DNA of 47,228 nt, from positions 1 through 47,228 of the forward strand of contig JBFMHI010000008.1 of assembly GCA_040753085.1 (NCBI GenBank), read 5' to 3'. This DNA comes from a bacterium (GTDB lineage Bacteria; UBA9089; JASEGY01). Below the pieces are notes generated by a model. That model saw only the letters and a list, made by a program, of their open reading frames with translations. It was not told the origin of the DNA and ran no database searches. A program made the position numbers and the translations under genes. Below, one piece after another: positions 4,201 to 24,610 of this stretch (positions within the stretch are counted from its first letter, which is position 1; every line of letters starts with the position of its first letter).

Positions 4201-5061
4201 GGTGATGCCAACTGTGATGGTGATACCGACGTCACGGATGTAACCTATATGGAATACGCCCTCGTGGGTGACCCTGCCTATCCGGTCTGCAACGTCTTTA
4301 ACCTGGATACTACAGGGAATGGTGAGTTTAATGAGAATGACATCACCTGTCTGCAGAGGCTGCTGATTGGACTGGATTGCAGCGGCCTGCTGGCTCCGAC
4401 CCAGTTCCCCGAGGCAGCTACGGGAACGGTCAGAGAGGTGGCCTTTATGGTTGAAGGCATAGCCGACTTAGACGTGGCCTACCTGGATGTAAGCTATGGT
4501 AAAGGTATCCAGATCACGGGTATCACGGCTGGAGACCTGACCAAAGGCGCCACGCCGATCTTCAACCTCGAGGACGGCCGGGTACGGATGATCCTGAATA
4601 TGGCCGGTGTGAGCGGGGTAAGTGGCTCAGGTTCTATCTTCAAGGTCAGCTTTGTAGGCGAGGGAGAGTTCTCCATAGATCAGGTCGCCCTGGGCAGCGC
4701 TGAGGCCGATCTTATTTCGGCGGATGTGACCGCGCTGATCGCCGGCGAAGTGATCAAGGCTATTCCTACCAGGACGAAGCTCTACCAGAACTTCCCCAAT
4801 CCTCTCAATCCAGAGACCTTGATTCCTTTTGATCTGGCTACGGAGGCCCAGGTAACCATCAATATCTACAACCTGTCCGGCCAATTGATCAGGACCTTGG
4901 ATCTGGGCAAGCGGGAGGCCGGTTCTTATGTAGACAAGGATAAGGCCGCCTTCTGGAATGGAAGAGACAATGCCGGTGCGGAGGTATCCAGCGGCGTCTA
5001 TCTCTACCAGATCAAGGCGGGTGATTTCACCTCGACCAGGAAGATGATAGTCCTGAAGTAA
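1225..5061 (+). CDS. Secreted propeller-Fn3-cohesin-dockerin protein (copy 1)
   Basis: 1,278 residues. A Sec signal peptide (residues 1-29, cleavage after AQA) is followed by a TolB/PD40-type beta-propeller (about 32-297; blades with SPDGTYIIF, AFDGAQIVFAS-like and YSPDGSKIVF words). Five Fn3 domains follow (about 298-833; LTWTDNS and LSWTDN cores), then a cohesin-like domain (about 834-990) and a dockerin with two Ca-binding loops (GDANCDGDTDVTDV and NLDTTGNGEFNENDI, about 990-1052). A second cohesin-like domain (about 1055-1170) and a FlgD/type-A-like tail (about 1180-1278, ending in TSTRKMIVLK) complete it. Cysteine pairs are frequent in the Fn3 domains, fitting an extracellular protein. 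RBS GGAGG lies 5 bases before ATG. Expected role: surface adhesion or scaffolding; the ligand is unknown. It is a tandem paralogue of the next gene. Confidence 0.85.
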   Translation: MTDKPKNFLISAVALASVLILVGVGLAQADVSNKIIWQQDQNLVPDTNWDLYAMTNNESDSTQKTDSANTNEIHPSAAYDGSKVVYAKWDGTEYDIYYKTNGGAETKIIDNGQYPALGPCDQVAFCRNLMIYTCDLSGGNLSGAKGVAAGNNQWPSISPDGTYIIFGTDETNDNLNWEIYSMNFDGTGLTNLTVNAANDIDPAYSFDGAQIVFASNRLGNYDIHTMPAGGSPTPTQVTTNTAVDQYPFYSPDGSKIVFTSYRDDNKGEIYTVPSGGGAVTRLTTNSYHDRYPTWGGTASAPAAPTNLGLSDVTDNSIKLTWTDNSCNEDGFKVKRSTDNVTFSDVLDTPALSGKNNVIDWTDTGVLKCTHYYYYVQAWNGQGTANSSTVDTSTLDTVPAAPTGLTGTTSCWTCSDTTISLSWTDNAPTGGCNDEDSFSIWAAISGNPLTIMDTAPQHVGTGAVTDQCFEGLTLDTWYDIRVSADNQYGFSDLSDTITIPTKPAPPSGFMANAPAADSNGWRQIDLSWSDVSTINDGYYIQRYIVQGTAANDPVETCPCSTCDTATHYVPDGSAIKLVGTAVDSYPDSIGLLPKTCYYYQIRAYVEYYNGSDTTEATCHWEDSNCTNTTDTNPLPPSGLSLSEVDTDSIKISWTDNSGTYYYQQEDSFTVYRTVNNTGAIEVAAQAGSGSTVSTTDTGLTPGTQYCYTVSAWNSISEDTATATVCATTCETDPNKPTGLSKNVISSSQIDLSWTDNADNADTDEIWASQDGGAWAKLGDTTSLVAALPATNTYSATGLVGGSNYCFKITAVADNTGGCSPTQLTSDSDSACASTNVSNIWVDGPSNNGASECGHDTDGIQVPSQFSTRVKLDYVKDLNTIQFDVTYDNSVVETVSVSLGSKFSGASMVYNDVPGTVSVNIHIPGGPPLPKVDCPTGCDVITLVLKTVAGLAPDTWTLLDVINTQMSDNTAHPITVVSECGDTLYVPVGAGPLLGDANCDGDTDVTDVTYMEYALVGDPAYPVCNVFNLDTTGNGEFNENDITCLQRLLIGLDCSGLLAPTQFPEAATGTVREVAFMVEGIADLDVAYLDVSYGKGIQITGITAGDLTKGATPIFNLEDGRVRMILNMAGVSGVSGSGSIFKVSFVGEGEFSIDQVALGSAEADLISADVTALIAGEVIKAIPTRTKLYQNFPNPLNPETLIPFDLATEAQVTINIYNLSGQLIRTLDLGKREAGSYVDKDKAAFWNGRDNAGAEVSSGVYLYQIKAGDFTSTRKMIVLK

Positions 5062-5443: not shown

Positions 5444-5550
5444 TAAAGAGACTTTACCCATAAATACTAACGTGACAAGGCACTATTGACCCCTAATCCA
5501 AAACCAATTTGAAAGGGGATGAGCGAGACTCTTACCCTCTGGAGGTTGTA

Positions 5551-8500
5551 ATGACCGATAAGCGAAAGAAGTTTTTGATTTCAGCCGTAGCGTTAGCCTT
5601 GGTGCTGATATTAGTAGGCCTAGGTTTGGCCCAGGCGGATGTAAGTAATAATATCATCTGGCAGCAAGATCAGAATCTGGTTCCTGATACTAACTGGAAC
5701 CTCTATACCATGACCAACAATGAGAGCGACTCAACCCAAAAGACCGACTCGGCTGATACCAATGAGGTCCATCCTTCGGCGGCCTATGATGGGTCAAAGG
5801 TCGTTTATGCTAAGTGGGATGGGATACAGTATGATGTTTACTATAAAACGAACGGCGGTCCAGAGACTAAGATAATTGACGACGGTCAATACCCGGCTTT
5901 GGGACCCTGTGGTCAAGTGGCTTTTTGCCGTCGTAAACTTACTGGGGGTGTCTGGTGGTGGGGGATCTATACCACTAATCTATCTGGAAGTGGCCCAGAT
6001 GGTCCGTATTATGTTTTCTGGGGTGCAAATCATCAATGGCCTTCCATCTCCCCGGACGGCAAGTATATCATCTTTGCGACCGATGAAGAGGGGGACAATG
6101 ATAACTGGGAGATTTACCAGATGGACTATGGAGGGGGTGGCGAGATTAACCTGACTAACAACTGGGCTAACGATATCGATCCGGCCTATAGTTTTGACGG
6201 CACCCAGATTGTCTTTGCTTCCAACCGAAGTAATCCTGATAACAGTAGTAACTATGATATCTACACCATGCCTGCCGGCGGGAGCGGCAGCCCCACTCAG
6301 GTCACTACCAACACTGCGGTGGACCAGTATCCTTTTTATTCTCCTGATGGGAGCAGGATAGTTTTCACCTCTTACCGTGATGATAATAAGGGTGAAATCT
6401 ACACCATTCCCAGCGGTGGCGGCGATCCCGTCAATGTAACAAGATTAACCAACAATAGTTACCATGATCGGTATCCCACCTGGGGAGGCACGGCCAGTGC
6501 GCCTGCTGCGCCTATTAATCTTACCTTAAGTAATGTCGCCTACGATTCCATTAAACTCACCTGGACCGACAACTCCTGTAATGAGGATGGCTTTAAGGTG
6601 AAGAGGAGCACGGATAACGTAACCTTTAACGATGTCTGGGATTTCCCGGCTGTATCCGGAAAGGGCACCCCCCTGGACTGGACGGATACGGGCGTGCTTA
6701 AGTGCACCCAGTATTACTATTATGTTCAGGCTTGGAATGGGGTAGGCACGGCCAATTCGTCTACGGTGGATACCTTTACGCTCGACACCGTCCCGGCCGC
6801 GCCCACCGGTCTGAAAGGCACCACCTCGTGTTGGACGTGCTCGGACACCACCATTAGCCTTAGCTGGACCGATAATGCCCCCACGGCTGGTTGTAGTGAT
6901 GAGGACAGCTTCTCGATCTGGGCCTCAATCAGCGGCGGCGCCCTCACCATAATAGATACGGCTCCCCAACACCCGGGGACCGGAGCGGTTACTAACCAGT
7001 GTTTTGATAACTTAGAGCCAGACACCCGGTATTCCATCAGGGTGAGCGCTGATAATCAATATGGTTCCTCAGATCTGTCGGATACGATTGTGATTCCTAC
7101 CAAGCCGGCACCACCGTCTGGCCTTATGGCAAATGCCCCGGCGGCTGATAGTAATGGTTGGCGCCAGATCGATCTCAGTTGGTCTGACGTCTCGACGATC
7201 AACGATGGTTACTACATTCAGAGGTATATTGTCCAGGGGACGGCCGCTAATGACCCGGTGGAGACCTGTCCGTGTACTTGCGAAAAGGCTAACTATGTCC
7301 CGGATGGCTCGGCCATCAAGCTGGTGGGTTCGGCTCTTACGGACTATCCTGATAGTATAGGTCTTCTTCCCAAGACCTGTTACTATTACCAGATAAGGGC
7401 TTATGTTGAGTATTACAACGGATCAGATACGACGGAAGCCACCTGCCATTGGGAGGATTCTAATTGCACCAACACCACGGATACGAATCCACTGCCACCG
7501 TCTGGGCTTTCACTCTCAGAGGTGGATACGGATTCCATCAAGATCAGTTGGACTGACAATTCCGGGACCTTCTACTACCAGCAGGAGGATAGCTTCACGG
7601 TTTACAGGACGGTTAATAACACCGGCACCATTGTGGTGGACGCTCATGCCGGAAGTGGATCAACCGTAGACACGACTGATACAGGTTTAACACCGGGAAC
7701 CCAATACTGCTATACCGTGAGCGCCTGGAATAGTATCAGCGAGGATACAGCTACGGCCACAGTCTGTGCTACTACCTGCGAGACTGACCCGAATAAACCC
7801 ACCGGCCTCAGCTTGCAGGTCAAGTCATTCAGTCAGATCGACCTGACCTGGACTGACAACGACGATAGTGCGGACACGGATGAAATCTGGGCCAGCCAGG
7901 ATGGAGGTGCCTGGGCCAAGCTGGGTGATACCATGCCGGTTGCCGCGGGCGCCACTAATACTTACTCGGCGACAGGTCTTGTCGGAGGTAGTAACTACTG
8001 CTTTAAGATAACGGCGGTGGCCGACAATACAGGAGGGTGTAGTCCCACGCAACTTACTTCTGACTCGGATTCAGCATGTGCCAGCACCAACGTCTCCAAT
8101 ATTTGGGTTGACGGTCCGAGCAATAATGGTCCTGAGGAGTGCGGGGGCGGTGAGGATGAGATACAGGTGCCCAGCCCGTTTATTAATACTACTAATACTA
8201 AGGTGAAGCTGGATTACGTGAAGGATCTGAATACGATCCAGTTCGATGTCACCTATGACACCATCGAGGTGGAAACCGTATCGGTAAGCCTGGGTAGTAA
8301 GTTCAGCGGAGCCACCGCGGTATATAACGATGTTGAGACACCGACAGGCCGGGCGCTGAAGGTTAATATCCATATACCGGGTGGTAGTCTCCCACTTCCA
8401 AAGGTTGATTGCCCCACGGGATGTGAGGTAATCACCTTAGAGGTTAAATTCGCGGGCGTCAGCCCCCCGTGGGGGGCATCTCTGGGAGTGGAAAACACCC

Positions 8501-9447
8501 AGATGTCCGATAATACTGCCCAACCGATCACTGTTGTAGGGGAATGCGGTGATTTTCTATATCTATGGGTATATAATCCCCGCCCGGGTGATGCCGACTG
8601 TGATGGTGATACCGAGGTTGCGGATGTAACCTATATGGAATATGCCCTCGTTGGCCACCCTGACTATCCGGTCTGCAACGTCTTTAACCTGGATACTACA
8701 GGTAATGGTGAGTTTAATGAGAGTGACATCACCTGTCTGCAGAGGCTGCTGATCGGACTGGATTGCAGCGGCCTGCTGGCTCCAATCCAGTTCCCAGAGA
8801 TAGCCACGGGAACGGTCAGAGAGGTGGCCTTTATGGTTAAAGGCATAGCCGACTTAGACGTGGCCTACCTGGATGTAAGCTATGCTAAAGGTATCCGGAT
8901 CACTGGTATCACGGCTGGAGACCTGACCGCAGGCGCCACGCCGATCTTCAACCTGGAGGACGGCCGGCTGCGGATGATCCTGAATATGGCCGGTGTGAGT
9001 GGGGTAAGTGGCTCAGGCTCTATCTTCAAGGTCGGCTTTGTAGGCGAGGGAGAGTTCTCCATTAATCAGGTCGCCCTGAGCAGTGCTGAGGCCACGCTTA
9101 TTGGGGCGGATGTGACCACGATAATAACCGGCCAAGTGAGCCGGGCTATTCCTACCAGGACGAGGCTTTACCAGAACTTCCCCAATCCTCTCAATCCAGA
9201 GACCTTGATTCCTTTTGATCTGGCTACGGAGGCCCAGGTAACCATCAATATCTACAACCTGTCCGGCCAATTGATCAGGAGCCTGGATCTGGGCAAGCTG
9301 GCGGTCGGTTCTTATGTAGACAAGGAGAAGGCCGCCTTCTGGAATGGAAGAGACAATGCCGGGGTGGAGGTATCCGGCGGCGTCTATCTCTACCAGATCA
9401 AGGCCGGTGATTTCACCTCGACCAGGAAGATGATAGTCCTGAAGTAA
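5551..9447 (+). CDS. Secreted propeller-Fn3-cohesin-dockerin protein (copy 2)
   Basis: 1,298 residues from the ATG at 5551, chosen because the same MTDK start, RBS (GGAGG, 5 bases upstream) and signal peptide occur in copy 1; an in-frame upstream start at 5509 adds 14 unconserved residues. Domain order equals copy 1: signal peptide, PD40 beta-propeller (to about 320), five Fn3, cohesin-like, dockerin (GDADCDGDTEVADV and NLDTTGNGEFNESDI), cohesin-like, FlgD-like tail. Identity is high in the Fn3 and tail regions, while the propeller (extra loop near KLTGGVWWWGIYTT) and first cohesin carry insertions and substitutions. Selection or recombination may therefore act unevenly. Both copies are presumably exported and anchored or released through the C-terminal domain. 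The ligand is unknown. Confidence 0.85.
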   Translation: MTDKRKKFLISAVALALVLILVGLGLAQADVSNNIIWQQDQNLVPDTNWNLYTMTNNESDSTQKTDSADTNEVHPSAAYDGSKVVYAKWDGIQYDVYYKTNGGPETKIIDDGQYPALGPCGQVAFCRRKLTGGVWWWGIYTTNLSGSGPDGPYYVFWGANHQWPSISPDGKYIIFATDEEGDNDNWEIYQMDYGGGGEINLTNNWANDIDPAYSFDGTQIVFASNRSNPDNSSNYDIYTMPAGGSGSPTQVTTNTAVDQYPFYSPDGSRIVFTSYRDDNKGEIYTIPSGGGDPVNVTRLTNNSYHDRYPTWGGTASAPAAPINLTLSNVAYDSIKLTWTDNSCNEDGFKVKRSTDNVTFNDVWDFPAVSGKGTPLDWTDTGVLKCTQYYYYVQAWNGVGTANSSTVDTFTLDTVPAAPTGLKGTTSCWTCSDTTISLSWTDNAPTAGCSDEDSFSIWASISGGALTIIDTAPQHPGTGAVTNQCFDNLEPDTRYSIRVSADNQYGSSDLSDTIVIPTKPAPPSGLMANAPAADSNGWRQIDLSWSDVSTINDGYYIQRYIVQGTAANDPVETCPCTCEKANYVPDGSAIKLVGSALTDYPDSIGLLPKTCYYYQIRAYVEYYNGSDTTEATCHWEDSNCTNTTDTNPLPPSGLSLSEVDTDSIKISWTDNSGTFYYQQEDSFTVYRTVNNTGTIVVDAHAGSGSTVDTTDTGLTPGTQYCYTVSAWNSISEDTATATVCATTCETDPNKPTGLSLQVKSFSQIDLTWTDNDDSADTDEIWASQDGGAWAKLGDTMPVAAGATNTYSATGLVGGSNYCFKITAVADNTGGCSPTQLTSDSDSACASTNVSNIWVDGPSNNGPEECGGGEDEIQVPSPFINTTNTKVKLDYVKDLNTIQFDVTYDTIEVETVSVSLGSKFSGATAVYNDVETPTGRALKVNIHIPGGSLPLPKVDCPTGCEVITLEVKFAGVSPPWGASLGVENTQMSDNTAQPITVVGECGDFLYLWVYNPRPGDADCDGDTEVADVTYMEYALVGHPDYPVCNVFNLDTTGNGEFNESDITCLQRLLIGLDCSGLLAPIQFPEIATGTVREVAFMVKGIADLDVAYLDVSYAKGIRITGITAGDLTAGATPIFNLEDGRLRMILNMAGVSGVSGSGSIFKVGFVGEGEFSINQVALSSAEATLIGADVTTIITGQVSRAIPTRTRLYQNFPNPLNPETLIPFDLATEAQVTINIYNLSGQLIRSLDLGKLAVGSYVDKEKAAFWNGRDNAGVEVSGGVYLYQIKAGDFTSTRKMIVLK

Positions 9448-11373: not shown

Positions 11374-11390
11374 TTGGCACAAAAATTGCT
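11374..11390 (+). promoter_or_regulatory. Sigma-54-type promoter before the giant secreted protein
   Basis: TTGGCACAAAAATTGCT fits TGGCAC-N5-TTGCT exactly, with GG (11376-11377) and GC (11388-11389) 10 bases apart. It lies about 160 bases before the giant gene's ATG, with the duplicated heptamer leader between. No enhancer-binding regulator gene is in this window. Confidence 0.7.
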
Positions 11391-11401
11391 GTATCAATAA
11401 G

Positions 11402-11558
11402 AGGCAGGGAGTATCGAGCATCGAGGATCGAGCATCGAGCTCCGAATTAGAAGGGGAGGCTGATTAATGAAGATTAAGGCAGGGAGTATCGAGCGTCGAG
11501 GATCGAGCATCGAGCATCGAGCTCCGAATTAGAAGGGGAGGCTGATTAATGAAGATTA
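11402..11558 (+). repeat. Tandemly duplicated leader: heptamer repeat + RBS + start
   Basis: Copy 1 (11402-11476) and copy 2 (11477-11558) each contain AGGCAGGGAGT, an ATCGAGN array, TCCGAATTAGAAGGGGAGG and ATGAAGATTA. They differ by one 7-bp unit (four units against five) plus one base. The copy-1 ATG (11467) opens a 21-codon frame ending at TAG 11530-11532, out of frame with the true gene. The copy-2 ATG (11549) starts the 3,540-residue protein. Confidence 0.85.
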
Positions 11559-14500
11559 GAAAACCGACGATAATAGCTACCTTATTCTTAACTTTAGGGG
11601 TCATTTTTGGTTTAGGGATAGGCGATGCCGAGGCAGGCGTCAATGTCACCTTTAACCCCTCCCGCACGGCTCTCTCACCAGGAGAGACCTTCTGGGTCAC
11701 CGTGGATGTGGATCAGGTTGACAGCCCTATGTCCAGTGTCCATCTTAATGCCGTGGAGTTTGATGCCACCCGTCTTGAGGTCAAGGCTTACGAGGTGGGA
11801 GATCTGATGACCAGACCAGGGACCTATGTAGGCGGTTATGTTGACAATGAGCCAAATTGGCAGGGGAAAGGCTACGCTAACCTTCTTGTCCGTGAGTCGG
11901 GAACTTCTCCGGTGGGCGTCACCGGGTCCGGCTCGGTGGTCAAGGTAAAGTTTCAGGTAAGATCTGGGGTTAGCGGAACCGCCAAGATAGGTCTGACGGC
12001 AGAGCCTCAGAACCCTCTTGTTTCCTACAGGATTTTTCTAAAGGAGGTCTCTGGTAAAGAAATACCGGTCGATTCTATAACGCCTACTACGGTTCAGATT
12101 ATGGGCCCACCTTCGCCGCCAACCAATCTGACGGCCACCACCGTGTCGAGCAGCCAGATCAGACTAAACTGGACAGACTCCTCGGATAATGAGGACGTCT
12201 TTGTTATTGAAAGGAAAGCTCCCGGGGCGTCATCCTATAGTGAAGTGACTACTGTCTCTGCTAATACGGAAGAATGGTTTGATACGGGTTTAGCTCCCAA
12301 CATTCAATATTGTTACCGGGTAAAGGCCCGTAATGCGGTGGGTGATTCAAATGCCTCCAACGAGTCATGTGCCACCACCCAGGACGTGGCCCCCTCCAAC
12401 CCTACCGGGCTGACGGCTACCTCTAAATCAACCAGTCGAATCGATCTGGCCTGGAATGATCTTGCTAATGAGGCGGGCTATGCCATTCAGGCCAGAACAG
12501 CCACAACTTCCTTTGCCGACATAGATACTGTTTCGGCCAACACCACTTCTTACTCTCATACCGGCCTTTCTACCAATACTACTTACTATTACCAGATACG
12601 GGCCTTTAATGCTATTGGTGTTTCCGGGTATTCCTCGACCGCGGAGGCCACCACTTACGATAATCCGCCCACCGCACCAACCGGCCTGGTTCTTTCCGGT
12701 GTTACGGCTAACAAGATAGATTTCAACTGGACGGATAATTCAAATAATGAAGCCGGCTTTGAGATCGAAAGAAAGACAGAGACCCAACCCTCTTACAGTT
12801 TGATAGATACGGTGGGCGCTGGAGTAACCAACTTCAGCAACACCGGCCTTGATCCTAATACCCATTATTACTACAGGGTCAGGGCCTGGAGTGTGAATAT
12901 CGCCGGAGATAAGAATTGGTCCCCTTATTCCAATGCGGCTGATACCACCACCCTAGATATCCCACCTAATGCCCCCAGCGGATTGAGGGCCACCCCTAAT
13001 TCAAGCAGCCAGATCACCCTTGATTGGACCGATAACTCGAATAATGAAACCGGTTTTAAGATCGAACGCCGAACAGCCGCTACCTCCTTTACGGAAATAG
13101 GCGCTTCTTCAGCTAATGTGAATCAATTTATTGATACAGGTCTTTCTCCAAATACAATTTACTACTATCAGGTCAGGGCCTATAACAACGCTGGGAATTC
13201 AGGTTATTCTAATACGGCCTTGGCTACGACTAACGATGTCCCACCTGCCCCACCCGGCAACCTCCAGGCGGCGGCTATTTCAGACAGTCGAATTGATCTT
13301 TTTTGGGCAGACAACTCCGGTAATGAGGATGGCTTTATTATTGAGAGGGGTTCGGCTGAGGGCGGTCCTTTTTCTAAGGTTGGCGAGGTAGATACGGGAA
13401 CAACTACTTACAGCAATACGGGGCTTACTCCCAGAACCACTTATTACTACCGGGTAAAAGCCTATAATGGCCTCGGCCACTCGGCTCCCTCGAATGTGGC
13501 CAACGCCACGACTAATGACACCTTTCCCGCGGCCCCGTCCAATCTTAGCCTTTCTGATACTGGCATTTACTCCCTCAGGCTTAATTGGTCGGACAATGCT
13601 AATAATGAGACCGGTTTCCGGATCGAGAGAAAGACGGCCGGGGGTGCCTATATTCCAGTAGCCGAGATACCGGCGGCCAATACTACCACTTATCTTGATA
13701 CGGGCCTTAATCCGGAGACAACTTATACCTACCGGGTCAGGGCCTATAATGGGGCGGGCAACTCGGGTTATTCCAACGAGGCCTCAGGGACTACCCTTCC
13801 CTCTCACTACACCCTTACGGTCAGCTCTATTTATGGAAGTCCGGCGCCGGGTGTAGGCCCTCATTCTTATGCTTCAGGGGCCTCAGTCACGGCTTCGGTT
13901 AGTTCGCCAGTTATTAATGGCACCACCCGCTATGTCTGCACCGGTTGGACCGGCACAGGTTCAGTCCCGGCCAGCGGAGGTGGCACCACCGTTACTTTCA
14001 ATATTACCCAGACTTCGACTATTGCCTGGCAGTGGCGGGTTGAATACCAGCTCCTCACCGCCGTAAACAACCCTGAGTGGGGAGAGATATCACCAACCTC
14101 TGGAGGGTGGTATGAAGCCGACACCCAGGTCACTATCACCGCTACCCCAAAGACAGGCTATACTTTTTCGGGTTGGGCTGGCCACCTTTCTGGTTCGACC
14201 AATCCTGCTTCTCTGACTATGAACGGTCCCAAGTCAGTCGCCGCCAATTTCACCTCAGGCGGAGGCCCAACCGGTCAATGCGGGCTGACGGTCGTTTCTA
14301 TCTATGGGAGCCCTTCGCCTGGTGTGGGAACTCATTCGTATGACAGTGGCACTTTTCTCACTGCCTCGGTTACCTCACCAGTAAGTGGCGGAGCCGGGAT
14401 TCAATATGTCTGCACCGGCTGGACCGGAACCGGTTCTGTCCCGGCCAGCGGCGCTGACACAAGTGTTTTCTTTAACCTCACTCAAGATTCTACCATCACC

Positions 14501-17500
14501 TGGAACTGGAAGACAGAGTACTATTTGACCACCTCAGTTAATCCGTCAGGGGCCGGAGGTGTCACTCCCTCTTCTGGTTGGTATAAGGCGGGGGAGACGG
14601 TTAACTTGGCGGCTGTGCCTGAGGGATGCTTTACCTTCTTGGGGTGGACGGGCGACCTCTCCGGCCCAACCAATCCAAGCCCTCTGAGTATGAACGGCCC
14701 CAGGTCAGTCGCCGCCAACTTTAGCGGCCGCATGTGTCACGGGGCTGACGATAACTGTGATGATCAGATAGATAACTGGGAGCTGTTAGACCATATTGAC
14801 CGGTGGGCGAATAACCAGGTGGATAATTGGGACTTACTTGATGCCATTGATATCTGGACCAGAGGGAGTGGGGCTTGTTCGGCCCCTGCCTCTGTTCCTG
14901 CCTTCTCTCCACCGCTTTTTAGAAGTCCTCCAAGGGCTTCATCGAACCCTCAGGTTACCGTTATCAGAACCCTGGATTGTTCCTCTGAGACCGCCATAGG
15001 GGGAGAGCTGGCCGTGGATGTTGATGAGTCTAACAAACCTAAGGGGATCATCATCGAGGAGTATATCCCGGTTAACTGGACTCTAATTTCTTCCAACCCT
15101 GACCCTGATGTCTTTAACCCCGCCACTGGCAAAGTGAGCTGGGTTTTCTATGGTTCCGGAATAACTGATCGGACTATCACTTACCAGGTTCAGGTAGGAA
15201 GTGGCAGCAAGGGCTTCAGGGGGCAGGTGTTTTACAATGACCCGACCGGGACCCCAATAACCAGGGATATCGAGGGAGATACCTCCTGCGAAGAAGAAGT
15301 TACCCTGACCGTTGTTTCTCCCTACGACAGCCCCTCGCCTGCAGCCGGAGTCCATTCTTATTCCCCGGGGACATCGGTGACCGCTTCGGTGACCTCTCCC
15401 GTAAGCGGCCCGGCCGGCACCCGTTATGTCTGTATGGGTTGGATAGGCACTGGCTCAGTGCCGAGCAGTGGCAGTAATACCAGCCTCACTTTTACCATTA
15501 ATCAGGATTCCACTCTAACCTGGAACTGGAAGACAGAATACTATCTGACCACCTCGGTTAGTCCAGCCGGGGGAGGGACCATTAGCCCTTCCTCAGGCTG
15601 GTATGAAAGTGGTCAATCGGTGGCCCTAACGGCTGTGCCGGCGAGCGGCTATCATTTTTCCGGCTGGAGCGGTGATCTCTCCGGGATGACTAATCCGACT
15701 AGTCTAATTATGTCCGGTCCTAAATCAGTTACCGCTAACTTTAACCGTCCGCCGGTGGCTAATGCCGGTTCGGATCAAACGGTTGGTCTTGGGAGCCTGG
15801 TTGTTTTAGATGGTTCCTTAAGCAGTGATCCGGATGGTAATCCCCTCACCTATCAATGGACCCAAACCGCTGGACCAGCAGTTACCCTTTCTAATCCCAC
15901 TGCTCAGAAGCCAACCTTTACCCCATTAACACCCGACCGCTACCATTTTCGATTAGTCGTCAATGACGGTCAACTGGACAGCAATCCGGATGAGGTAATT
16001 ATCACGGTAACGGCCTGTGTCAACCAGTATGCCCTTACGGTATCTTCCGCTTATGACAGCCCGTCTCCTTCCACAGGGACACATTGTTACCCTCCGGGGA
16101 CACCGATTACCGCTTCAGTAACCTCGCCGGTCAGCGACGGGACTGGTGTTCGCTATGTCTGCACCGGCTGGACCGGAACCGGTTCTGTCCCGGTCAGCGG
16201 CCCCGGAACAAGCATCGATTTTACTATCACTCAAGATTCAACCATCACATGGCATTGGAAAACTGAATATCAGCTAACTACTTCAGTTAACCCTGGCGGG
16301 GCCGGGACCATATCCCCGGCCGCCGGCTGGTATGAAGAGGGAATAATTTTAGCGGTCAAGGCCATTCCCTCTACCGGCTATGCCTTTACCGCCTGGAGCG
16401 GCGATCTTTCCGGATCAAACAGTTCTACTTCTTTGACCATGAATCTTCCGAAAACCATCACGGCCAACTTTCAACTAGTGCAGCTTATGGTGGTCAGCCT
16501 TAATGCCCCGGCTGAGGTTATTTACGACAGCGCTTTCACAGCCGCCGTAAATATAAATCAGATAAGCTCCCTTGATCACGGGAATATCCAGCTTGACTTT
16601 GACTCTAATCTTTTTAAACTTCTCTCCTTAGATAAGGGGAGTTTGATCTCGGGGGCCAGTTCAATCAGCAGCCTGTCAGGCGCCTGGTTTTTCTTTGATC
16701 TGCCTGAGGGCCCTGGGGTAAGCGGAGCCGGAACCTTGATGGAGGCAAAGTTCAAGGCCATTGGACCGCCCTCCTCGGTAGGTAAGATTGATATCTCGGA
16801 CATCTCGCTGGGAGATGCGGCCGGTCAGGAGATAGTAGTAAACTCTGTGGTGGGGACGGAGGTGAAGATAAAGATTATTGATGATAAGCCTGCTCCGCCG
16901 ACTAACCTTAAGGGGGAGGTCATTTCCCTGACCAGGATCGATCTGAGCTGGTCGGATAATTCAACTAATGAAGCCGGCTTTGAGATTGAACAAAAAAAAG
17001 GCACAGGCGGATATAGCTGGCTGGCCACTATCTCCGCTGGGGTTACTTTCTATTCTGATCAGCCTTTGTCTCCGGAGACTACTTACTGTTATCGGGTGAG
17101 GGCTTATAACAACCATGGCTATTCAGACTGGTCAAATGAGAGGTGTGCCACTACCACCGAGATGCCTCCGCCAAAACCGACCAATCTCAAGGCGGCGGCT
17201 GTTTCGCCTAACCAGATTGATCTGACCTGGAATGAAAATTCGGCTAATAACGAGCGGGGGTTCAAGGTAGAACGGAGTCTTACGGGCGGTGGGGCGGGAT
17301 TTTCTCAAATTGGTGAGGTGTCGGCCAATGTGACCGTCTATCAGGACCAGGGGCTTAATCCCAAGACCACCTATTTTTATCGGGTCAAGGCCTGGAACAA
17401 TCAAGGCGATTCGCCTTATTCCAGTGAGGCCTCAGCCACTACCCTTAGAGAAACCGGGCTCAAGATTAATGCCCCTGAGACTGTAGTTACTCAGGCCAGC

Positions 17501-20500
17501 TTTAAGGCCGTGGTAGAAGTGACGGCGGTTGATGATCTGAGTCTGGTCAGCTTCCGGATGAGCTTTGACCCAACTGTCCTTCGGCTTATTTCCACGGAGG
17601 CGGGGGATTTGATATCTTCCCTCAATCCAACTATCAGTTCTACTAATGCCTCAGGCAAAAGCACCCTCTGGATCAATATCCCCGGCGGGGTAAGCGGCTC
17701 TGGAGGATTGGTCAAGTTCGGTTTTGAGGCCATAGGGGCCGTCGGAGACTCAAGCCGGATCGAACTGGATAGCCTAATGTTAGTAGATAAGGCGGGTAGT
17801 AATATTCAGGTTGATTCGGTCCGGCCGGTCCAGGTGACCATAACCGGCAGCCCACCGCCTTCACCCACTAATTTGAGCGTAACTAGATTTGGGCAGAATA
17901 GTATCACCCTCGCCTGGCAGGACAACGCCTATAATGAAACAGGCTTTATTCTCGAAAGAAAAACCTCTCCTTATGCGGTGATAGCTATTCTCCCCGCTAA
18001 CATCACTACTTATACCGATAGGGGTCTTTCTCCCGGTACTCTTTACTATTATCGGGTCAAGGCCTACAATGATTTTGGTGAATCCGGTTATTCCAATGAA
18101 GTTACACCTACCTGCTGCCCTTCTTTACCTGTTCCCCCAACCCATCTTACGGCGGCGATTATATCCAGCCGCCAGGTGGAGCTGGGGTGGTGGGACAATT
18201 CTGATAACGAAGCTGGTTTTAAGATCGAAAGAAGCCTAGCCACCAGTGGACTATATTCTGAGATAGCCGCTGTTCCCACCAACGTCAAAAGTTACATAGA
18301 TACGGGCGTATCACCCTGTATCTCTTATTCTTACCGGGTCAAGGCTTACAACGAGGCTGGTGATTCTGATTATTCTAATGAGACCACTATTACCGCTCAG
18401 GGGAGTCCTGAATCTCCCTTAGGGCTGACAGGAGAGGCGGTCTCATTTACCCAGGTAAATCTTTCCTGGCCGGATTCAGATAATGAGGCCGGATATAAGA
18501 TTGAAAGAAGCCAAAAGGGAACCAGCTTTACTCAGATAGGCATAGTGGACGCTAATGTCACTTCTTACAGCGACAGCGGACTTAACCCAGAGGTGGCTTA
18601 TTGCTACCGAGTTAGGGCCTATAATGAATGCGGAGAATCAAACTATACTAATGAAGTGTGTCTCACCACGGGCGTGATGGTCAAAGTCGTAGCTCCAGCC
18701 ACTGTTTCCTATGGAACTACCTTTGAAGCCTCAATAGAGGTCAGCCATGTGACCAGCCTGGATATTCTCCGGTTTAAATTGGAATTTAACCCCTCTGTCC
18801 TCCAGGTGGTTCCTCCGGTAAACAAAGGAACGTTAACCTCTCCGGTAGTGGAACCTATGGCTAACATTCAAAATGGAGAGGGGTGGCTGATGGCCATCAT
18901 TAATCTGCCCGGAACGGCGGGCGTAAGCGGAGAAGGTTCAGTGGCCATAATAGAATTTAAAGCGATAGGGACTAATGGAGCCGTAAGTGAGCTTCAATTA
19001 CCGGAATTTAATATGGGAGATAGTCTCACCAATCCAATCCCTATTGGGGAAATCATTCCAGCCCGGGTGGAGGTAATAGGCGGGCCACCTCAGTCCCCTT
19101 ACAATCTAAAGGCCACCGCCATATCAGAAACTGGAATTGAGCTTGCCTGGCAGAGCCGCCCTGGAGATAAGCTCGGTTTTATTATTGAAAAGAGAAAGTT
19201 AGGTGAGACCTTCGGTGAACTAACCCGGCTGCCGGCTAATGTGACGACTTATACTGACTCCAACCTTGAATCTGAAACGACTTACTGCTATCAAGTCAAG
19301 GCCTACAATAACTATGGTGAGTCTGGTCTGTCCAATGAGGCCTGTGCTATTACGCCGGGACCGTTGGCGCCGCCGGATAATCTCTCGGCCGCGGCTGAAT
19401 CAAGTAGTCAGATCAGGCTCAATTGGATGGATAATTCTACTAATGAGACCGGATTTAAGATCGAAAGGCGAAAAAAGGGCAGTAATATCTGGAATCAAAT
19501 AGGCGCTACTCCGGCTAATGCCACGACCTATTTAGACAGCGGTCTGGAATCAGAGACCACTTATTACTACCAGGTCAGGGCTTATGAGGGGGCCAGGCAT
19601 TCGGGGTATTCCAATGAGGCCTCGGCCACCACGCCTGGTTCTCTGCCGGCGGCGCCGGACAATTTGCGGGGACAGGAAGTGCTTCATAACCAGATAAAGA
19701 TAACCTGGCGGGATAATTCGACTAATGAAACAGGTTTTAAGATTGAGAAGAGAACAGGGGCGGCCGGGTCATTTGACCAAATAGATACTGTCTTTGCCGG
19801 GGTGACTGTTTATCAGGATACTGATGTTAATCCGGAGACTTCATATTACTATCGGGTCAGGGCCTACAATCAAGGGGGGGATTCGGCCTATTCCAATATA
19901 GTTTCTCTTCAGACCCCGCCGTCACCTCCAGTGCCGCCCAGTGACCTTACGGCAAACGCTGTTTCCAGCAGCCGGATAGATCTTTTCTGGCAGGATAATT
20001 CCCTGAATGAAGACGGCTTTAAGATCGAACGACGTCTTGACCTGCCCGATAACTGGGTTCAGATCAAAAAGGTGGGGGCGGAGGTAAATCAATATCACGA
20101 TATTGAGGTAAGCCATTCTACAACTTATTACTATCGAGTGAGGGCCTCCAGTGATAAAACAGGCGATTCCGAATATTCCAACATAGCTTCGGTTGCCACG
20201 TCTCCTTTGCCAGAAATCTCCCCGGTCAAGTTGGCCTTTGCCTCGGATAGAACAGGGGATTATGAAGTCTACCTGATGGATGATAATGGGGGGGCAGTGA
20301 CTCAACTGACTGATGCACCCGAGGCCCAGGATTGGCAGCCGGCCATCTCTCCCGATGGAACTAAAGTGGTCTTTGTTTCCGATCGAGAAGGTAGTTATGA
20401 TATCTACTTGATGGGGGCGGGAGGGACCAGCTTGACAAGATTAACCAGTGATCCGGCTGAGGATATTGAGCCTGCCTTTTCGCCTGATGGAACTCAGATA

Positions 20501-22171
20501 GTCTTCAGCTCCAATCGGGATGGTGATTATGAGATCTATTGGCTGAAGGTGAACGATCCAGAGCCGCCGACCCAGTTGACCCAAAATACAGCCCAGGATC
20601 ATTCGCCTGCCTTTTCCCCTGATGGCACTCAGATTCTCTTTGTCTCTGATCAGGATGGCAACAACGAGATCTATACTATGGATGTGAATGGCTATGGGGT
20701 TTCCCCCTTAACCTCCACTAACTATCCGGTGGATAACTCTCAGCCGTGTTTTTCCCCGGATGGCGCCAGGATCGCCTTTAGCTCTAACCAAAACGGGAAT
20801 GACGAAATCTATGTAATAGATAGTAACGGCGAAAATCTGGAAAATATAACCAACCGTTCATCGGCTGATATGGATGCCGCCTTTTCGCCCAACGGAAATC
20901 TGATTGCCTTCACCTCTGATCGTGACGGCCACCAGGAGATATATCTTATCAATATCGCCCAGGGGGGAGAGCCGAAGAATCTGACTAACCACTCGGCCAG
21001 GGATATTCACCCATCTTTTGGCCTGGCTGGTTTACCTATGGCTCCGGCAAATCTCTCCCTCCGGAAGGTAGAGGATAGCCAGGTTGAACTCCAGTGGCAG
21101 GATAGATCCATTGATGAGCAAGAGTTTGTCATCGAAAGAAGGATCGAGGGCGGGTCTTACTCTCAGAGAGCGGCGGTCGGTCCTGGGATTACCACTTACC
21201 TGGATTCTGTTACTCCAAAGATCGACTACTGTTATCAGGTTAGGGCCAAAAATGAATACGGCGCCTCAGAGCCATCCAATGAGGTCTGCCTTTCTGACTG
21301 CTGTTTGGCTCCGAATCCACCGGCCGGTCTTTCAGCCGAGGTTGTATCAGACCGCCGGATTAAGTTGACCTGGACTGATAATTCTGATAATGAGAGCCAC
21401 TTTAAGATTGAGCGAAGTAGAAACGGAAACGATTACTACACGCTGTCCGTGGTGGGCGCTAATGAGACTACTTACAATGATTCGGATTTTGACCCGGGGT
21501 CTGACTACTATTACCAGGTCAGGGCGGTAAATGCTCAGGGAGAATCCGATCCGTCAAACGAAGCCTTGGCTAAGGTCGCTCTCCCGCCTCCCACCAATCT
21601 CACGGGGAAGCGTTTATCAGACCGTCAGGTTAAACTAACCTGGCAGGATAACTCGGAAGATCCTGAAGAAGACGGTTTTTCCATTGAAAGAAAGACTGAG
21701 GGGGGGAGGTATGCTGAGTTGGCTGCGGTAGGCCGGGATGAGACCACTTATCAGGACACCGGCCTGGAGGCGGAGAAAGCTTATTATTATCGGGTCAGGG
21801 CTTACGATAATTTGGGCAGGAGGTCAAAACATTCTAACGAGGTTAAGGTGCCACTTTTCTCAGAGGCGTTGCCAGTATCAAATGGTCTTATGGTTTATCC
21901 CAATCCTTTTTTTTATAGGGAACATAACCAGCTTACCTTTGAAGGCGATATTTCAGTCGGCGGTAAGATTTGGATTTATACGCCGGCGGGTGAATTAGCT
22001 CAAACCCTCTCTATTGATACCTTAGAAGATAACAATGCCAATGGGCAAAAGGTGTTTACCTGGATTAATCCAACTAATGAACAAGGCGAGAGACTGGCCA
22101 GCGGCATTTACATTTACCTCCTCAAAGGTCCAAAGGGTAAGGCCATAGGCAAATTGGCAGTCGTGCATTAA
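11549..22171 (+). CDS. Giant secreted multi-Fn3/cohesin protein, 3,540 residues
   Basis: Signal peptide 1-29 (cut near AEAG), then cohesin 1 (31-185) and six Fn3 domains (186-750). Four copies of a paired module follow (about 750-908, 911-1062, 1250-1400, 1491-1645), each a YVCTGWTGTGSVP half and an InlB-B-like half (GWSGDLSG...ANF). A dockerin-like duplicated Asp-rich stretch (about 1064-1104) and a PKD/REJ-like domain (1400-1489) are interspersed. Next come cohesin 2 (1645-1775), two Fn3, cohesin 3 (1967-2099), three Fn3, cohesin 4 (2375-2509) and four Fn3. A six-bladed PD40 propeller (2892-3160; SDRxGxYEIYLM blades), three Fn3 and a FlgD-like tail (3442-3540) end it. I count 18 Fn3. An extended surface fibre or scaffold is the natural inference; no catalytic domain is seen. 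The 11549 ATG is chosen because the signal peptide follows it in frame and GGGGAGG precedes it by 8 bases. Confidence 0.88.
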   Translation: MKIRKPTIIATLFLTLGVIFGLGIGDAEAGVNVTFNPSRTALSPGETFWVTVDVDQVDSPMSSVHLNAVEFDATRLEVKAYEVGDLMTRPGTYVGGYVDNEPNWQGKGYANLLVRESGTSPVGVTGSGSVVKVKFQVRSGVSGTAKIGLTAEPQNPLVSYRIFLKEVSGKEIPVDSITPTTVQIMGPPSPPTNLTATTVSSSQIRLNWTDSSDNEDVFVIERKAPGASSYSEVTTVSANTEEWFDTGLAPNIQYCYRVKARNAVGDSNASNESCATTQDVAPSNPTGLTATSKSTSRIDLAWNDLANEAGYAIQARTATTSFADIDTVSANTTSYSHTGLSTNTTYYYQIRAFNAIGVSGYSSTAEATTYDNPPTAPTGLVLSGVTANKIDFNWTDNSNNEAGFEIERKTETQPSYSLIDTVGAGVTNFSNTGLDPNTHYYYRVRAWSVNIAGDKNWSPYSNAADTTTLDIPPNAPSGLRATPNSSSQITLDWTDNSNNETGFKIERRTAATSFTEIGASSANVNQFIDTGLSPNTIYYYQVRAYNNAGNSGYSNTALATTNDVPPAPPGNLQAAAISDSRIDLFWADNSGNEDGFIIERGSAEGGPFSKVGEVDTGTTTYSNTGLTPRTTYYYRVKAYNGLGHSAPSNVANATTNDTFPAAPSNLSLSDTGIYSLRLNWSDNANNETGFRIERKTAGGAYIPVAEIPAANTTTYLDTGLNPETTYTYRVRAYNGAGNSGYSNEASGTTLPSHYTLTVSSIYGSPAPGVGPHSYASGASVTASVSSPVINGTTRYVCTGWTGTGSVPASGGGTTVTFNITQTSTIAWQWRVEYQLLTAVNNPEWGEISPTSGGWYEADTQVTITATPKTGYTFSGWAGHLSGSTNPASLTMNGPKSVAANFTSGGGPTGQCGLTVVSIYGSPSPGVGTHSYDSGTFLTASVTSPVSGGAGIQYVCTGWTGTGSVPASGADTSVFFNLTQDSTITWNWKTEYYLTTSVNPSGAGGVTPSSGWYKAGETVNLAAVPEGCFTFLGWTGDLSGPTNPSPLSMNGPRSVAANFSGRMCHGADDNCDDQIDNWELLDHIDRWANNQVDNWDLLDAIDIWTRGSGACSAPASVPAFSPPLFRSPPRASSNPQVTVIRTLDCSSETAIGGELAVDVDESNKPKGIIIEEYIPVNWTLISSNPDPDVFNPATGKVSWVFYGSGITDRTITYQVQVGSGSKGFRGQVFYNDPTGTPITRDIEGDTSCEEEVTLTVVSPYDSPSPAAGVHSYSPGTSVTASVTSPVSGPAGTRYVCMGWIGTGSVPSSGSNTSLTFTINQDSTLTWNWKTEYYLTTSVSPAGGGTISPSSGWYESGQSVALTAVPASGYHFSGWSGDLSGMTNPTSLIMSGPKSVTANFNRPPVANAGSDQTVGLGSLVVLDGSLSSDPDGNPLTYQWTQTAGPAVTLSNPTAQKPTFTPLTPDRYHFRLVVNDGQLDSNPDEVIITVTACVNQYALTVSSAYDSPSPSTGTHCYPPGTPITASVTSPVSDGTGVRYVCTGWTGTGSVPVSGPGTSIDFTITQDSTITWHWKTEYQLTTSVNPGGAGTISPAAGWYEEGIILAVKAIPSTGYAFTAWSGDLSGSNSSTSLTMNLPKTITANFQLVQLMVVSLNAPAEVIYDSAFTAAVNINQISSLDHGNIQLDFDSNLFKLLSLDKGSLISGASSISSLSGAWFFFDLPEGPGVSGAGTLMEAKFKAIGPPSSVGKIDISDISLGDAAGQEIVVNSVVGTEVKIKIIDDKPAPPTNLKGEVISLTRIDLSWSDNSTNEAGFEIEQKKGTGGYSWLATISAGVTFYSDQPLSPETTYCYRVRAYNNHGYSDWSNERCATTTEMPPPKPTNLKAAAVSPNQIDLTWNENSANNERGFKVERSLTGGGAGFSQIGEVSANVTVYQDQGLNPKTTYFYRVKAWNNQGDSPYSSEASATTLRETGLKINAPETVVTQASFKAVVEVTAVDDLSLVSFRMSFDPTVLRLISTEAGDLISSLNPTISSTNASGKSTLWINIPGGVSGSGGLVKFGFEAIGAVGDSSRIELDSLMLVDKAGSNIQVDSVRPVQVTITGSPPPSPTNLSVTRFGQNSITLAWQDNAYNETGFILERKTSPYAVIAILPANITTYTDRGLSPGTLYYYRVKAYNDFGESGYSNEVTPTCCPSLPVPPTHLTAAIISSRQVELGWWDNSDNEAGFKIERSLATSGLYSEIAAVPTNVKSYIDTGVSPCISYSYRVKAYNEAGDSDYSNETTITAQGSPESPLGLTGEAVSFTQVNLSWPDSDNEAGYKIERSQKGTSFTQIGIVDANVTSYSDSGLNPEVAYCYRVRAYNECGESNYTNEVCLTTGVMVKVVAPATVSYGTTFEASIEVSHVTSLDILRFKLEFNPSVLQVVPPVNKGTLTSPVVEPMANIQNGEGWLMAIINLPGTAGVSGEGSVAIIEFKAIGTNGAVSELQLPEFNMGDSLTNPIPIGEIIPARVEVIGGPPQSPYNLKATAISETGIELAWQSRPGDKLGFIIEKRKLGETFGELTRLPANVTTYTDSNLESETTYCYQVKAYNNYGESGLSNEACAITPGPLAPPDNLSAAAESSSQIRLNWMDNSTNETGFKIERRKKGSNIWNQIGATPANATTYLDSGLESETTYYYQVRAYEGARHSGYSNEASATTPGSLPAAPDNLRGQEVLHNQIKITWRDNSTNETGFKIEKRTGAAGSFDQIDTVFAGVTVYQDTDVNPETSYYYRVRAYNQGGDSAYSNIVSLQTPPSPPVPPSDLTANAVSSSRIDLFWQDNSLNEDGFKIERRLDLPDNWVQIKKVGAEVNQYHDIEVSHSTTYYYRVRASSDKTGDSEYSNIASVATSPLPEISPVKLAFASDRTGDYEVYLMDDNGGAVTQLTDAPEAQDWQPAISPDGTKVVFVSDREGSYDIYLMGAGGTSLTRLTSDPAEDIEPAFSPDGTQIVFSSNRDGDYEIYWLKVNDPEPPTQLTQNTAQDHSPAFSPDGTQILFVSDQDGNNEIYTMDVNGYGVSPLTSTNYPVDNSQPCFSPDGARIAFSSNQNGNDEIYVIDSNGENLENITNRSSADMDAAFSPNGNLIAFTSDRDGHQEIYLINIAQGGEPKNLTNHSARDIHPSFGLAGLPMAPANLSLRKVEDSQVELQWQDRSIDEQEFVIERRIEGGSYSQRAAVGPGITTYLDSVTPKIDYCYQVRAKNEYGASEPSNEVCLSDCCLAPNPPAGLSAEVVSDRRIKLTWTDNSDNESHFKIERSRNGNDYYTLSVVGANETTYNDSDFDPGSDYYYQVRAVNAQGESDPSNEALAKVALPPPTNLTGKRLSDRQVKLTWQDNSEDPEEDGFSIERKTEGGRYAELAAVGRDETTYQDTGLEAEKAYYYRVRAYDNLGRRSKHSNEVKVPLFSEALPVSNGLMVYPNPFFYREHNQLTFEGDISVGGKIWIYTPAGELAQTLSIDTLEDNNANGQKVFTWINPTNEQGERLASGIYIYLLKGPKGKAIGKLAVVH

Positions 22172-23680: not shown

Positions 23681-24610
23681 ATGAAGGCCACTGGATTTTT
23701 GAAGGGAGGCATAATTCTCTTAATTACCTTAACTCTTGGGGCGGCGACAGGATGGACGAGTAGTTATGAGAAGGCCGGAACGGCTGGGGCTGTCTTTCTC
23801 AAGAACAGTTTGGGCGTGAGGACAGCCGGCTTGGGCGAGGCATATTGTGGAGTCCCGACTAATCTTGAAACCATTTACCTTAATCCGGCTGGACTGGCCG
23901 GCTTGAACCAGCCGGAATTCGGAGGGGCAATTTATGAGCGTTTCGTAGGCATAAAGCAAGGCTCATTAGCCCTGGCCATTCCCTGGAACCAAAGGACCCT
24001 TGGCTTGGCGGTTATTTACTCTAATTCAGGGGATATAGATGGACGTGATGCCCAGGCAAATCCCACAGGCAGTTTTAATGGAATAGATTATGCCTTTTCG
24101 GCTTCCTTGGCCGGAGGAATGATGAGCCGCCTTTCTTACGGGGTAAGTTTGAAACTAATCAATCTAAAGATCAAGGATGATGCGGCTAATTTAGGATACG
24201 TCCTTGATGTAGGCGGGCTATATCAGACTAACTTAGCCGGTCTTTCCCTGGGCTTTGCCCTTCAAAATCTGGGTAATAAGATAAAGTTTTATGAGGAAGG
24301 GGATGATCTTCCGATGAGCTTCCGGATAGGGGTGGCCTATAATCAGGAGGCTCTGACCCTGGTTTCTGATGTGGCTAAGGTTAAAGATAGTGCCATCTCC
24401 TTAGGATTAGGGGGAGAATATCGGTTCAAAGAGATGCTTGCGGTTCGAGGCGGTTATCACTTAGAGGATGGCCGAGACAATGAGGGATTAAGTTTTGGTC
24501 TGGGTGCCAACTTGGCCCAAGAGACCTATCAAGTTCAATTTGATTACGCTTATATCCCTTACGAGAACCTGGATGACATTCATCGCCTCTCGGCCAAGAT
24601 AAGATTTTAA
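23681..24610 (+). CDS. PorV/PorQ-family outer-membrane beta-barrel protein
   Basis: 309 residues. A signal peptide (about 1-24) leads into the family hallmark GAVFLKNSLGVRTAGLGEAY and YLNPAGLAGL, followed by alternating amphipathic strands, the usual look of UPF0164/PorV-PorQ barrels related to FadL. The final residue is Phe (KIRF), fitting the outer-membrane barrel C-terminal signal. In Bacteroidota, PorV is the shuttle of the type IX system and carries proteins with type-A C-terminal domains. Here the window also encodes three proteins with similar C-terminal domains, which makes a functional link possible but unproven. Own promoter; the MITE (24651-24778) separates it from thioredoxin. Confidence 0.82.
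   Translation: MKATGFLKGGIILLITLTLGAATGWTSSYEKAGTAGAVFLKNSLGVRTAGLGEAYCGVPTNLETIYLNPAGLAGLNQPEFGGAIYERFVGIKQGSLALAIPWNQRTLGLAVIYSNSGDIDGRDAQANPTGSFNGIDYAFSASLAGGMMSRLSYGVSLKLINLKIKDDAANLGYVLDVGGLYQTNLAGLSLGFALQNLGNKIKFYEEGDDLPMSFRIGVAYNQEALTLVSDVAKVKDSAISLGLGGEYRFKEMLAVRGGYHLEDGRDNEGLSFGLGANLAQETYQVQFDYAYIPYENLDDIHRLSAKIRF

What the first reader, a model, noticed from the sequence alone, without database searches (positions are those of the whole stretch)
11549..22171. 3,540-residue secreted protein mixing four cohesins, about 18 Fn3, a propeller and a FlgD-like tail
No enzyme domain, yet all the parts of a scaffold. Four copies of a paired module (a YVCTGWTGTGSVP half plus an InlB-B-like half) look like a lineage-specific unit, and the first half is not a fold I can name. 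Single-gene energy cost is large, and a sigma-54 site suggests controlled expression.
Basis: partly seen in the sequence, partly recalled or inferred. Interest (0 to 1): 0.6.

Follow-up and report, generated by a model that had tools for sequence, protein, structure and literature searches.

The report
Giant surface protein with export partner
This gene encodes a giant, enzyme-free bacterial surface protein built like a beaded fibre; its tail marks it for type IX secretion, and the genome seems to pair it, like several other giants, with its own outer-membrane carrier gene, an arrangement that I found described for one class of such proteins but not for this one.

Summary
The 3,540-aa ORF has a signal peptide, 4 cohesins, 18 Fn3 domains, 4 paired modules, one PKD domain, about 6 PD40 blades and a FlgD-like tail. 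No enzyme domain was found. An exact sigma-54 site lies upstream. It is not an isolated oddity or a broken gene. A congeneric genome has an intact ortholog (73% identity, same domain order, dN/dS about 0.27). The genome also holds a paralog with PKD repeats in place of the paired modules. The paired module is not lineage-specific: it occurs in Omnitrophota, Verrucomicrobia, Lentisphaerae, Bathyarchaeota and others. Its second half is PF18998. Its unnamed first half is a divergent homolog of the second half. AlphaFold models the pair confidently (pLDDT 97.6), with no significant PDB match. The tail is a type IX secretion type-A CTD by HMM and by fold (best PDB hit PorZ), and the genome encodes a SprA homolog. 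The new point is that PorV-family genes (16 loci) recurrently lie just downstream of such giants: 9/16 here and 17/30 across the phylum, with none downstream or on the opposite strand. Tail and PorV distances correlate. I read this as T9SS cargo with dedicated PorV-type carriers. Whether the cohesins dock anything is untested.

The parts
11375..11390 (+). sigma-54 (-24/-12) consensus site TGGCACAAAAATTGCT, 158 nt before the start codon
   Evidence: only exact match in window; 10 exact in genome vs 3 for control; not found before the ortholog
11549..22171 (+). 3,540-aa giant surface protein gene
   Evidence: open frame; intact 3,570-aa ortholog, 73% identity, dN 0.17 / dS 0.62
11549..11635 (+). 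Sec-type signal peptide, residues about 1-29 (MKIRKPTIIATLFLTLGVIFGLGIGDAEA)
   Evidence: read from the sequence; no predictor was run
11681..12106 (+). cohesin 1, residues 45-186
   Evidence: PF00963 over cut-off; self-profile
12110..13783 (+). Fn3 1-6, residues 188-745
   Evidence: PF00041
13805..14254 (+). paired module 1 (half A 753-834 + half B 836-902)
   Evidence: half B = PF18998
14276..14725 (+). paired module 2 (910-991 + 994-1059)
14735..14869 (+). EF-hand-like, dockerin-like stretch, residues about 1063-1107 (DDNCDDQIDNWELL...NNQVDNWDLL)
   Evidence: read from the sequence; conserved in the ortholog; no Pfam hit at E<=1
15299..15742 (+). paired module 3 (1251-1331 + 1334-1398); segment modelled by AlphaFold2
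   Evidence: pLDDT 97.6, pTM 0.85
15764..16009 (+). PKD domain, residues 1406-1487
   Evidence: PF22352/PF18911
16025..16471 (+). paired module 4 (1493-1575 + 1577-1641)
16526..16870 (+). cohesin 2, residues 1660-1774
   Evidence: self-profile; this copy is not in the Pfam genome list
16889..17431 (+). Fn3 7-8
17492..17848 (+). cohesin 3, residues 1982-2100
17855..18655 (+). Fn3 9-11
18713..19081 (+). cohesin 4, residues 2389-2511
19088..20188 (+). Fn3 12-15
20210..20947 (+). six-blade PD40/TolB-like beta-propeller, residues 2888-3133
   Evidence: PF07676; 6 blades; 6 here and 7 in the ortholog with the genome-wide profile
21035..21841 (+). Fn3 16-18
21887..22168 (+). T9SS type-A C-terminal sorting domain (FlgD-like Ig fold), residues 3447-3540
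   Evidence: TIGR04183 29.4 bits vs cut-off 23; AF2 pLDDT 92.8, 7 strands; best PDB match PorZ 5m11, E 2.6e-5, TM 0.70
23681..24610 (+). PorV/PorQ-family outer-membrane protein, proposed dedicated carrier of the giant
   Evidence: NF033709 154 bits vs cut-off 90; directly downstream of the ortholog too
1225..5061 (+). 1,278-aa neighbour: propeller-Fn3-cohesin-dockerin-cohesin-T9SS tail
5509..9447 (+). 1,312-aa neighbour, same plan, near-duplicate of the previous one

Best explanation
The gene encodes a giant, enzyme-free, extended surface protein that leaves the cell by a type IX secretion system. Sec export by the signal peptide, passage through the genome's SprA homolog and capture of the C-terminal type-A CTD by a PorV-family barrel would put it on the outer surface. 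Its carrier is most likely the PorV/PorQ-family protein encoded just downstream. This is one case of a phylum-wide arrangement in which giant cargo and PorV-family carrier genes lie side by side. On the surface the chain of Fn3, InlB-B-like and PKD modules would act as a stalk, with four cohesins and a propeller as binding or packing modules, serving adhesion or display. Shown: domain content, conservation, tail identity, presence of a SprA homolog, gene pairing, and tail/PorV distance correlation. Inferred: actual secretion, cognate binding, and the adhesion or display role.
For: The tail matches T9SS type-A by HMM and by fold (PorZ), with the seven-strand Ig-like architecture described for CTDs (PMC11285876). 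A SprA homolog is present (174.9 bits, E 1.6e-51). PorV_fam hits lie at 16 places; 9 have a T9SS-tail ORF within 1.7 kb upstream on the same strand, and no nearest tail is elsewhere. In relatives it is 17 of 30 upstream against 0 downstream and 0 opposite, in about equal lengths searched. By tail class, 9 of 14 class-2 tails have a PorV neighbour against 0 of 21 class-1 tails. Tail and PorV distances correlate within the genome (Mantel r 0.69, p 0.00025, n=9; p 0.0009-0.03 on leaving out outliers). Giant plus PorV is kept in the congener. Purifying selection acts over the whole gene. Type-B CTD/PorP-SprF cognate pairs with the same gene order are experimentally known (PMC12618676).
Against: The GldM and C25/PorU models gave no hit; their controls were uninformative, so T9SS completeness is not shown. 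SprA scores below the curated cut-off (174.9 against 200). The C20 paralog and four other class-2 tails have no PorV neighbour, and several PorV genes have no tail upstream. The congener lacks the sigma-54 site. An unrelated coiled-coil gene separates giant and PorV here. Tail classes were defined by me after seeing the data.
Confidence: 0.62

Rival explanations
1. Cellulosome-like scaffoldin: the four cohesins capture dockerin-bearing hydrolases and surface proteins made by the same cell, the two dockerin-bearing neighbours among them, to form a cell-bound multi-protein complex.
For: The genome has about 20 dockerins and 21 cohesins. At least one dockerin protein carries GDSL lipase and GH20 domains. 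The giant has cohesins and no Pfam dockerin. A 3,755-aa cohesin protein with a CTD was proposed as a scaffoldin in Cloacimonadota (PMC8542988).
Against: Every dockerin mapped here lies in a protein that also has a cohesin and its own T9SS tail, mostly in one cohesin-dockerin-tail cassette, so a docking scaffold is not needed for display. No carbohydrate-binding module was found. Most dockerin proteins scanned show no enzyme domain. No binding was tested.
Confidence: 0.22
2. Plain giant adhesin with structural cohesins: the cohesin folds are only beta-sandwich spacers, like Fn3 and PKD, and the protein binds other cells, minerals or polymers through the propeller or the InlB-like modules. (This can be true together with the best explanation; it concerns what the exposed part does.)
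For: In the paralog a 17-PKD block replaces the middle, as if modules were interchangeable spacers, while the rest is kept. Cohesins alternate with Fn3 blocks. The weak fold neighbours of the paired module include Gram-positive surface adhesins and pilins (not significant).
Against: The cohesins keep their positions in ortholog and paralog, and dockerin-like partners exist in the genome.
Confidence: 0.4
3. The PorV neighbour is incidental: it is an outer-membrane channel working on its own, and all tails share one common carrier.
For: In Bacteroidota all type-A CTDs use a single PorV (PMC12618676). Several PorV_fam genes here stand alone. PF19572 (PorV) is only weakly matched.
Against: The association is strongly one-sided and phylum-wide, confined to one tail class, and shows distance correlation.
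Confidence: 0.15

Closest known systems
T9SS type-B CTD adhesins with cognate PorP/SprF carriers (e.g. SprB-SprF of Flavobacterium johnsoniae; PMC12618676, PMC9143113)
   Same: Very large adhesin-like cargo; outer-membrane carrier gene directly downstream; many carrier paralogs per genome; cargo-specific carriers.
   Different: Here the tail is type A by HMM and fold and the neighbour is PorV/PorQ-family, not PorP/SprF. In F. johnsoniae all type-A CTDs use one PorV.
Ca. Stygibacter 3,755-aa scaffoldin-like protein (Cloacimonadota; PMC8542988)
   Same: Giant non-catalytic protein with several cohesins and a T9SS-type CTD, in a genome with dockerin proteins.
   Different: That protein has CBM2/CBM3 modules; this one has Fn3, InlB-B-like modules, PKD and a propeller, and here the dockerins sit beside cohesins in the same proteins.
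PF18998 Flg_new_2 (divergent InlB B-repeat)
   Same: Half B of each pair is a clear member; half A has the same strand order and is detectably homologous.
   Different: Half A has no Pfam or NCBIfam family match; it has a longer C-x-G-W-x-G-T-G-S-V-P loop and W-x-W in place of the final N-F.
Clostridial cellulosomal scaffoldins
   Same: Several cohesins on one non-catalytic chain.
   Different: No CBM, no C-terminal dockerin hit, Gram-negative T9SS tail, and Fn3/propeller/InlB-like modules between cohesins.

Membership tests
T9SS type-A CTD cargo | C-terminal TIGR04183 domain | tested here: met
   29.4 bits vs cut-off 23 when scanned alone; all 36 aligned tails match at E<=0.01. Only 17.9 bits within the full protein.
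T9SS type-A CTD cargo | Seven-strand Ig-like CTD fold | tested here: met
   AF2 pLDDT 92.8, 7 strands; best PDB hit PorZ 5m11, E 2.6e-5.
T9SS type-A CTD cargo | SprA translocon in the genome | tested here: met
   TIGR04189 174.9 bits, E 1.6e-51, below the curated cut-off of 200.
T9SS type-A CTD cargo | Motor and PorU sortase present | tested here: inconclusive
   GldM and Peptidase_C25 had no hit; the controls did not show that the models would work in this phylum.
T9SS type-A CTD cargo | Secretion depends on CTD and SprA | not testable with these tools
   Needs an experiment.
PorV/PorQ family (neighbour gene) | NF033709 over cut-off | tested here: met
   154 bits vs 90.
Cellulosomal scaffoldin | Several cohesins on a non-catalytic chain | tested here: met
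Cellulosomal scaffoldin | Carbohydrate-binding module | tested here: not met
   No CBM family in the Pfam or NCBIfam scans.
Cellulosomal scaffoldin | Cohesins bind dockerins of cognate enzymes | not testable with these tools
   No binding test possible.
Dockerin (residues about 1063-1107) | Match to PF00404 | tested here: not met
   No hit at E<=1 (protein 8); one full EF-hand-like loop by eye.
PF18998 InlB B-repeat-like (half B) | Pfam gathering score | tested here: met
   Four copies, 47-73 bits vs 23.6.
PF18998 InlB B-repeat-like (half A) | Pfam gathering score | tested here: not met
   No hit. Distant homology by hhalign P 8.6e-7; one bridging repeat at 19.5 bits.
Sigma-54-dependent promoter | -24/-12 element present and conserved upstream | tested here: inconclusive
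   Exact in this species, not found in the congener; RpoN and activator not searched.

The most novel reading that the evidence does not exclude
In this phylum, type-A-tail T9SS giants are sorted by private PorV-family carriers encoded beside them, with 7-33 PorV-family hits per genome in all but one genome. This would be a third sorting logic next to 'one PorV for all type A' and 'PorP/SprF per type B', with a second tail class (cohesin-dockerin cassette tails) served by a common carrier.
Probability: 0.5. Interest if true: 0.68.

Novelty: new variant of a known kind. Interest (0 to 1): 0.5.

Why it matters
If right, type-A CTD recognition is not always a single shared PorV step: cargo and carrier can diversify in pairs, so CTD-PorV specificity could be read from sequence covariation in an uncultured phylum. 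It would also place giant cohesin proteins, often called cellulosome scaffoldins, among T9SS surface fibres, and supply a new model (half A) for an unannotated module spread over many phyla.

Tried and rejected
(1) Half A as an unknown lineage-specific domain: rejected by its spread and homology to half B. The first profile comparison, with four close copies, was not convincing (Prob 1.1) and became clear only with diverse sequences. (2) A named PDB fold for the pair: Foldseek gave nothing at E<=0.001, and sequence searches of the PDB gave only noise, mostly antibody-like chains. (3) Hidden enzyme domain: the CbhB, TolB, DPPIV and purple-phosphatase hits are Fn3 or propeller matches, far below equivalog cut-offs or not catalytic. 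(4) Broken gene: rejected. (5) Sigma-54 as a conserved shared control of the giants: exact sites precede this gene and the C22 giant, but not the ortholog or most giants. (7) Naming the phylum: the congener is recorded only as 'bacterium isolate Yes70-08'; a guess at its source paper did not name it.
Full report
OBSERVATION. The frame 11549-22171 is open and encodes 3,540 aa with a good ribosome site (GAAGGGGAGG) and a Sec-like N-terminus. Iterated profiles made from the protein alone give 18 Fn3, 4 cohesins, 4 half A, 4 half B and 6 PD40 blades. Pfam agrees and adds one PKD domain. No catalytic domain appears.

PAIRED MODULE. Half A has no convincing Pfam match (two chance-level hits at E>0.05 in one copy, none in the other three) and none in NCBIfam. 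Half B is PF18998. A scan of 84,980 genomes found 51 loci with half A, in Omnitrophota, Verrucomicrobia, Lentisphaerae, Kiritimatiellota, Sumerlaeota, Planctomycetota, Zixibacteria and archaea. In these, 58 of 128 half A copies are followed at once by a half B-like repeat (loci were selected by half A, so this describes the neighbourhood and is not a frequency in nature). With about 50 diverse pairs, half A and half B align over their whole length (hhalign P 8.6e-7), and a bridging repeat in another genome matches both half A (74 bits) and PF18998 (E 9.5e-4, below cut-off). AlphaFold2 gives pLDDT 97.6 and pTM 0.85, with the same strand order in both halves and one long strand (75-92) running through the junction, which suggests a stiff two-lobed rod. 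Foldseek finds no PDB match at E<=0.001; the weak neighbours include Gram-positive surface proteins. So the pair is common and widespread, half of it unnamed, and its fold has no close solved relative.

CONSERVATION. A genome of the same genus (G001; its contig has the same length, 20,070 bp, as JASEGY010000018.1, 'bacterium isolate Yes70-08') has an intact 3,570-aa ortholog with identical domain order, 73% identity over 3,519 positions, dN 0.17 and dS 0.62. The window's genome also holds a 3,641-aa paralog on contig C20, 45% identical over the last 1,440 residues, with the same cohesin/Fn3/propeller/tail frame but 17 PKD domains in the middle; it too has an ortholog in G001. The middle block thus looks exchangeable and the frame conserved.

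TAIL AND EXPORT. Scanned alone, the tail exceeds the TIGR04183 cut-off (29.4 against 23), and all 36 aligned tails match that family at E<=0.01. Its model has the seven strands of T9SS CTDs (PMC11285876) and its best PDB match is PorZ (E 2.6e-5, TM 0.70). The genome has a 2,494-aa SprA homolog (174.9 bits), about 50 FlgD-like tails and PorV-family genes at 16 places. GldM and C25 models found nothing, with uninformative controls, so a complete T9SS is not demonstrated.

CARGO-PORV PAIRING. In the window a PorV-family gene (23681-24610) lies 1.5 kb behind the giant; in the congener it follows directly. Across the genome 9 of 16 PorV places have a tail-bearing ORF within 1.7 kb upstream on the same strand; two further PorV genes sit at contig ends with almost no upstream sequence to judge. 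With about 51 tails among an assumed 2,700 genes, chance would give this with probability near 3e-12 (a rough binomial, gene number assumed). In 30 PorV loci from the 19 genomes of the phylum, 17 have a tail upstream, none downstream, none on the other strand, over about equal lengths searched; one of the 30 loci is from the window's own genome. Two tail classes can be told apart by their ends: '...YLYQLxxGxxxSTRKMIVLK' (class 1, behind a cohesin-dockerin cassette in most) and '...YIYxIxxxxGxxxGKLAVIR' (class 2, to which this giant belongs). PorV neighbours occur with 9 of 14 class-2 and 0 of 21 class-1 tails (Fisher 3e-5; classes defined post hoc). Tail and PorV distances among the nine pairs correlate (r 0.69, p 0.00025; weaker but still p 0.03 without three outliers). 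Known type-B CTD adhesins of Flavobacterium have cognate PorP/SprF carriers encoded directly downstream, whereas all type-A CTDs there use one PorV (PMC12618676). The arrangement here would be the type-A, PorV-family counterpart. In the papers I could search I found no description of it; most subscription papers were not searchable.

COHESINS. The genome has 21 cohesin and 21 dockerin matches. The dockerins mapped lie behind a cohesin in the same protein, mostly directly, and ahead of a class-1 tail, which argues that many cohesin-dockerin contacts may be internal or chain-forming instead of enzyme docking. One such protein has GDSL lipase and GH20 domains. The giant has cohesins only, so it could in principle receive those dockerins. 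I leave this open; nothing here tests binding.

REGULATION. The sigma-54 site is exact and rare, but was not found before the ortholog. It also precedes the C22 giant, another PorV-linked one, and a tail protein on C202. Controlled expression is plausible in this species, not established.

VERDICT. A real, conserved giant surface protein of a known general kind, whose unusual feature is less its size than its likely dedicated PorV-type export partner, an arrangement repeated across a poorly known phylum.

Noticed in passing
L054:1356-8837 (-) (G000:C69): The 2,494-aa SprA homolog has a PorG-like stretch near its N-terminus (residues 176-247, NF052316 43.9 bits): a possible natural PorG-SprA fusion.
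   Followed up: no
window 22611-23567 and 27105-27893: Two related coiled-coil genes; the first separates giant from PorV here but is absent from that place in the congener (L124), so it is probably a mobile or recently inserted gene.
   Followed up: partly
window 11409-11558: A tandem 82-nt duplication of the leader copies the ribosome site and start codon; the upstream copy (ATG at 11467) opens a 21-codon ORF ending at 11532, just before the giant's own ribosome site. The congener has a single copy.
   Followed up: partly
window 10876-11000: Array of a 9-nt unit AAAAGGACY between genes.
   Followed up: no
G000 genome, e.g. L057, L058, L062-L065: About 18 large proteins end in the same cohesin-dockerin-spacer-T9SS tail arrangement, with no mapped dockerin apart from a cohesin in the same protein.
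   Followed up: partly
L070:3660-9500 (-) (G000:C12): A PorV-linked protein with about seven tail-like (T9SS CTD-like) domains in one chain.
   Followed up: no
L060/L061 (G000:C16): A 7,175-aa open frame with a T9SS-like tail.
   Followed up: no
window 1225-5061 and 5509-9447: Two near-duplicate neighbours of the giant with propeller, Fn3, cohesin, dockerin-like and class-1 T9SS tail.
   Followed up: partly
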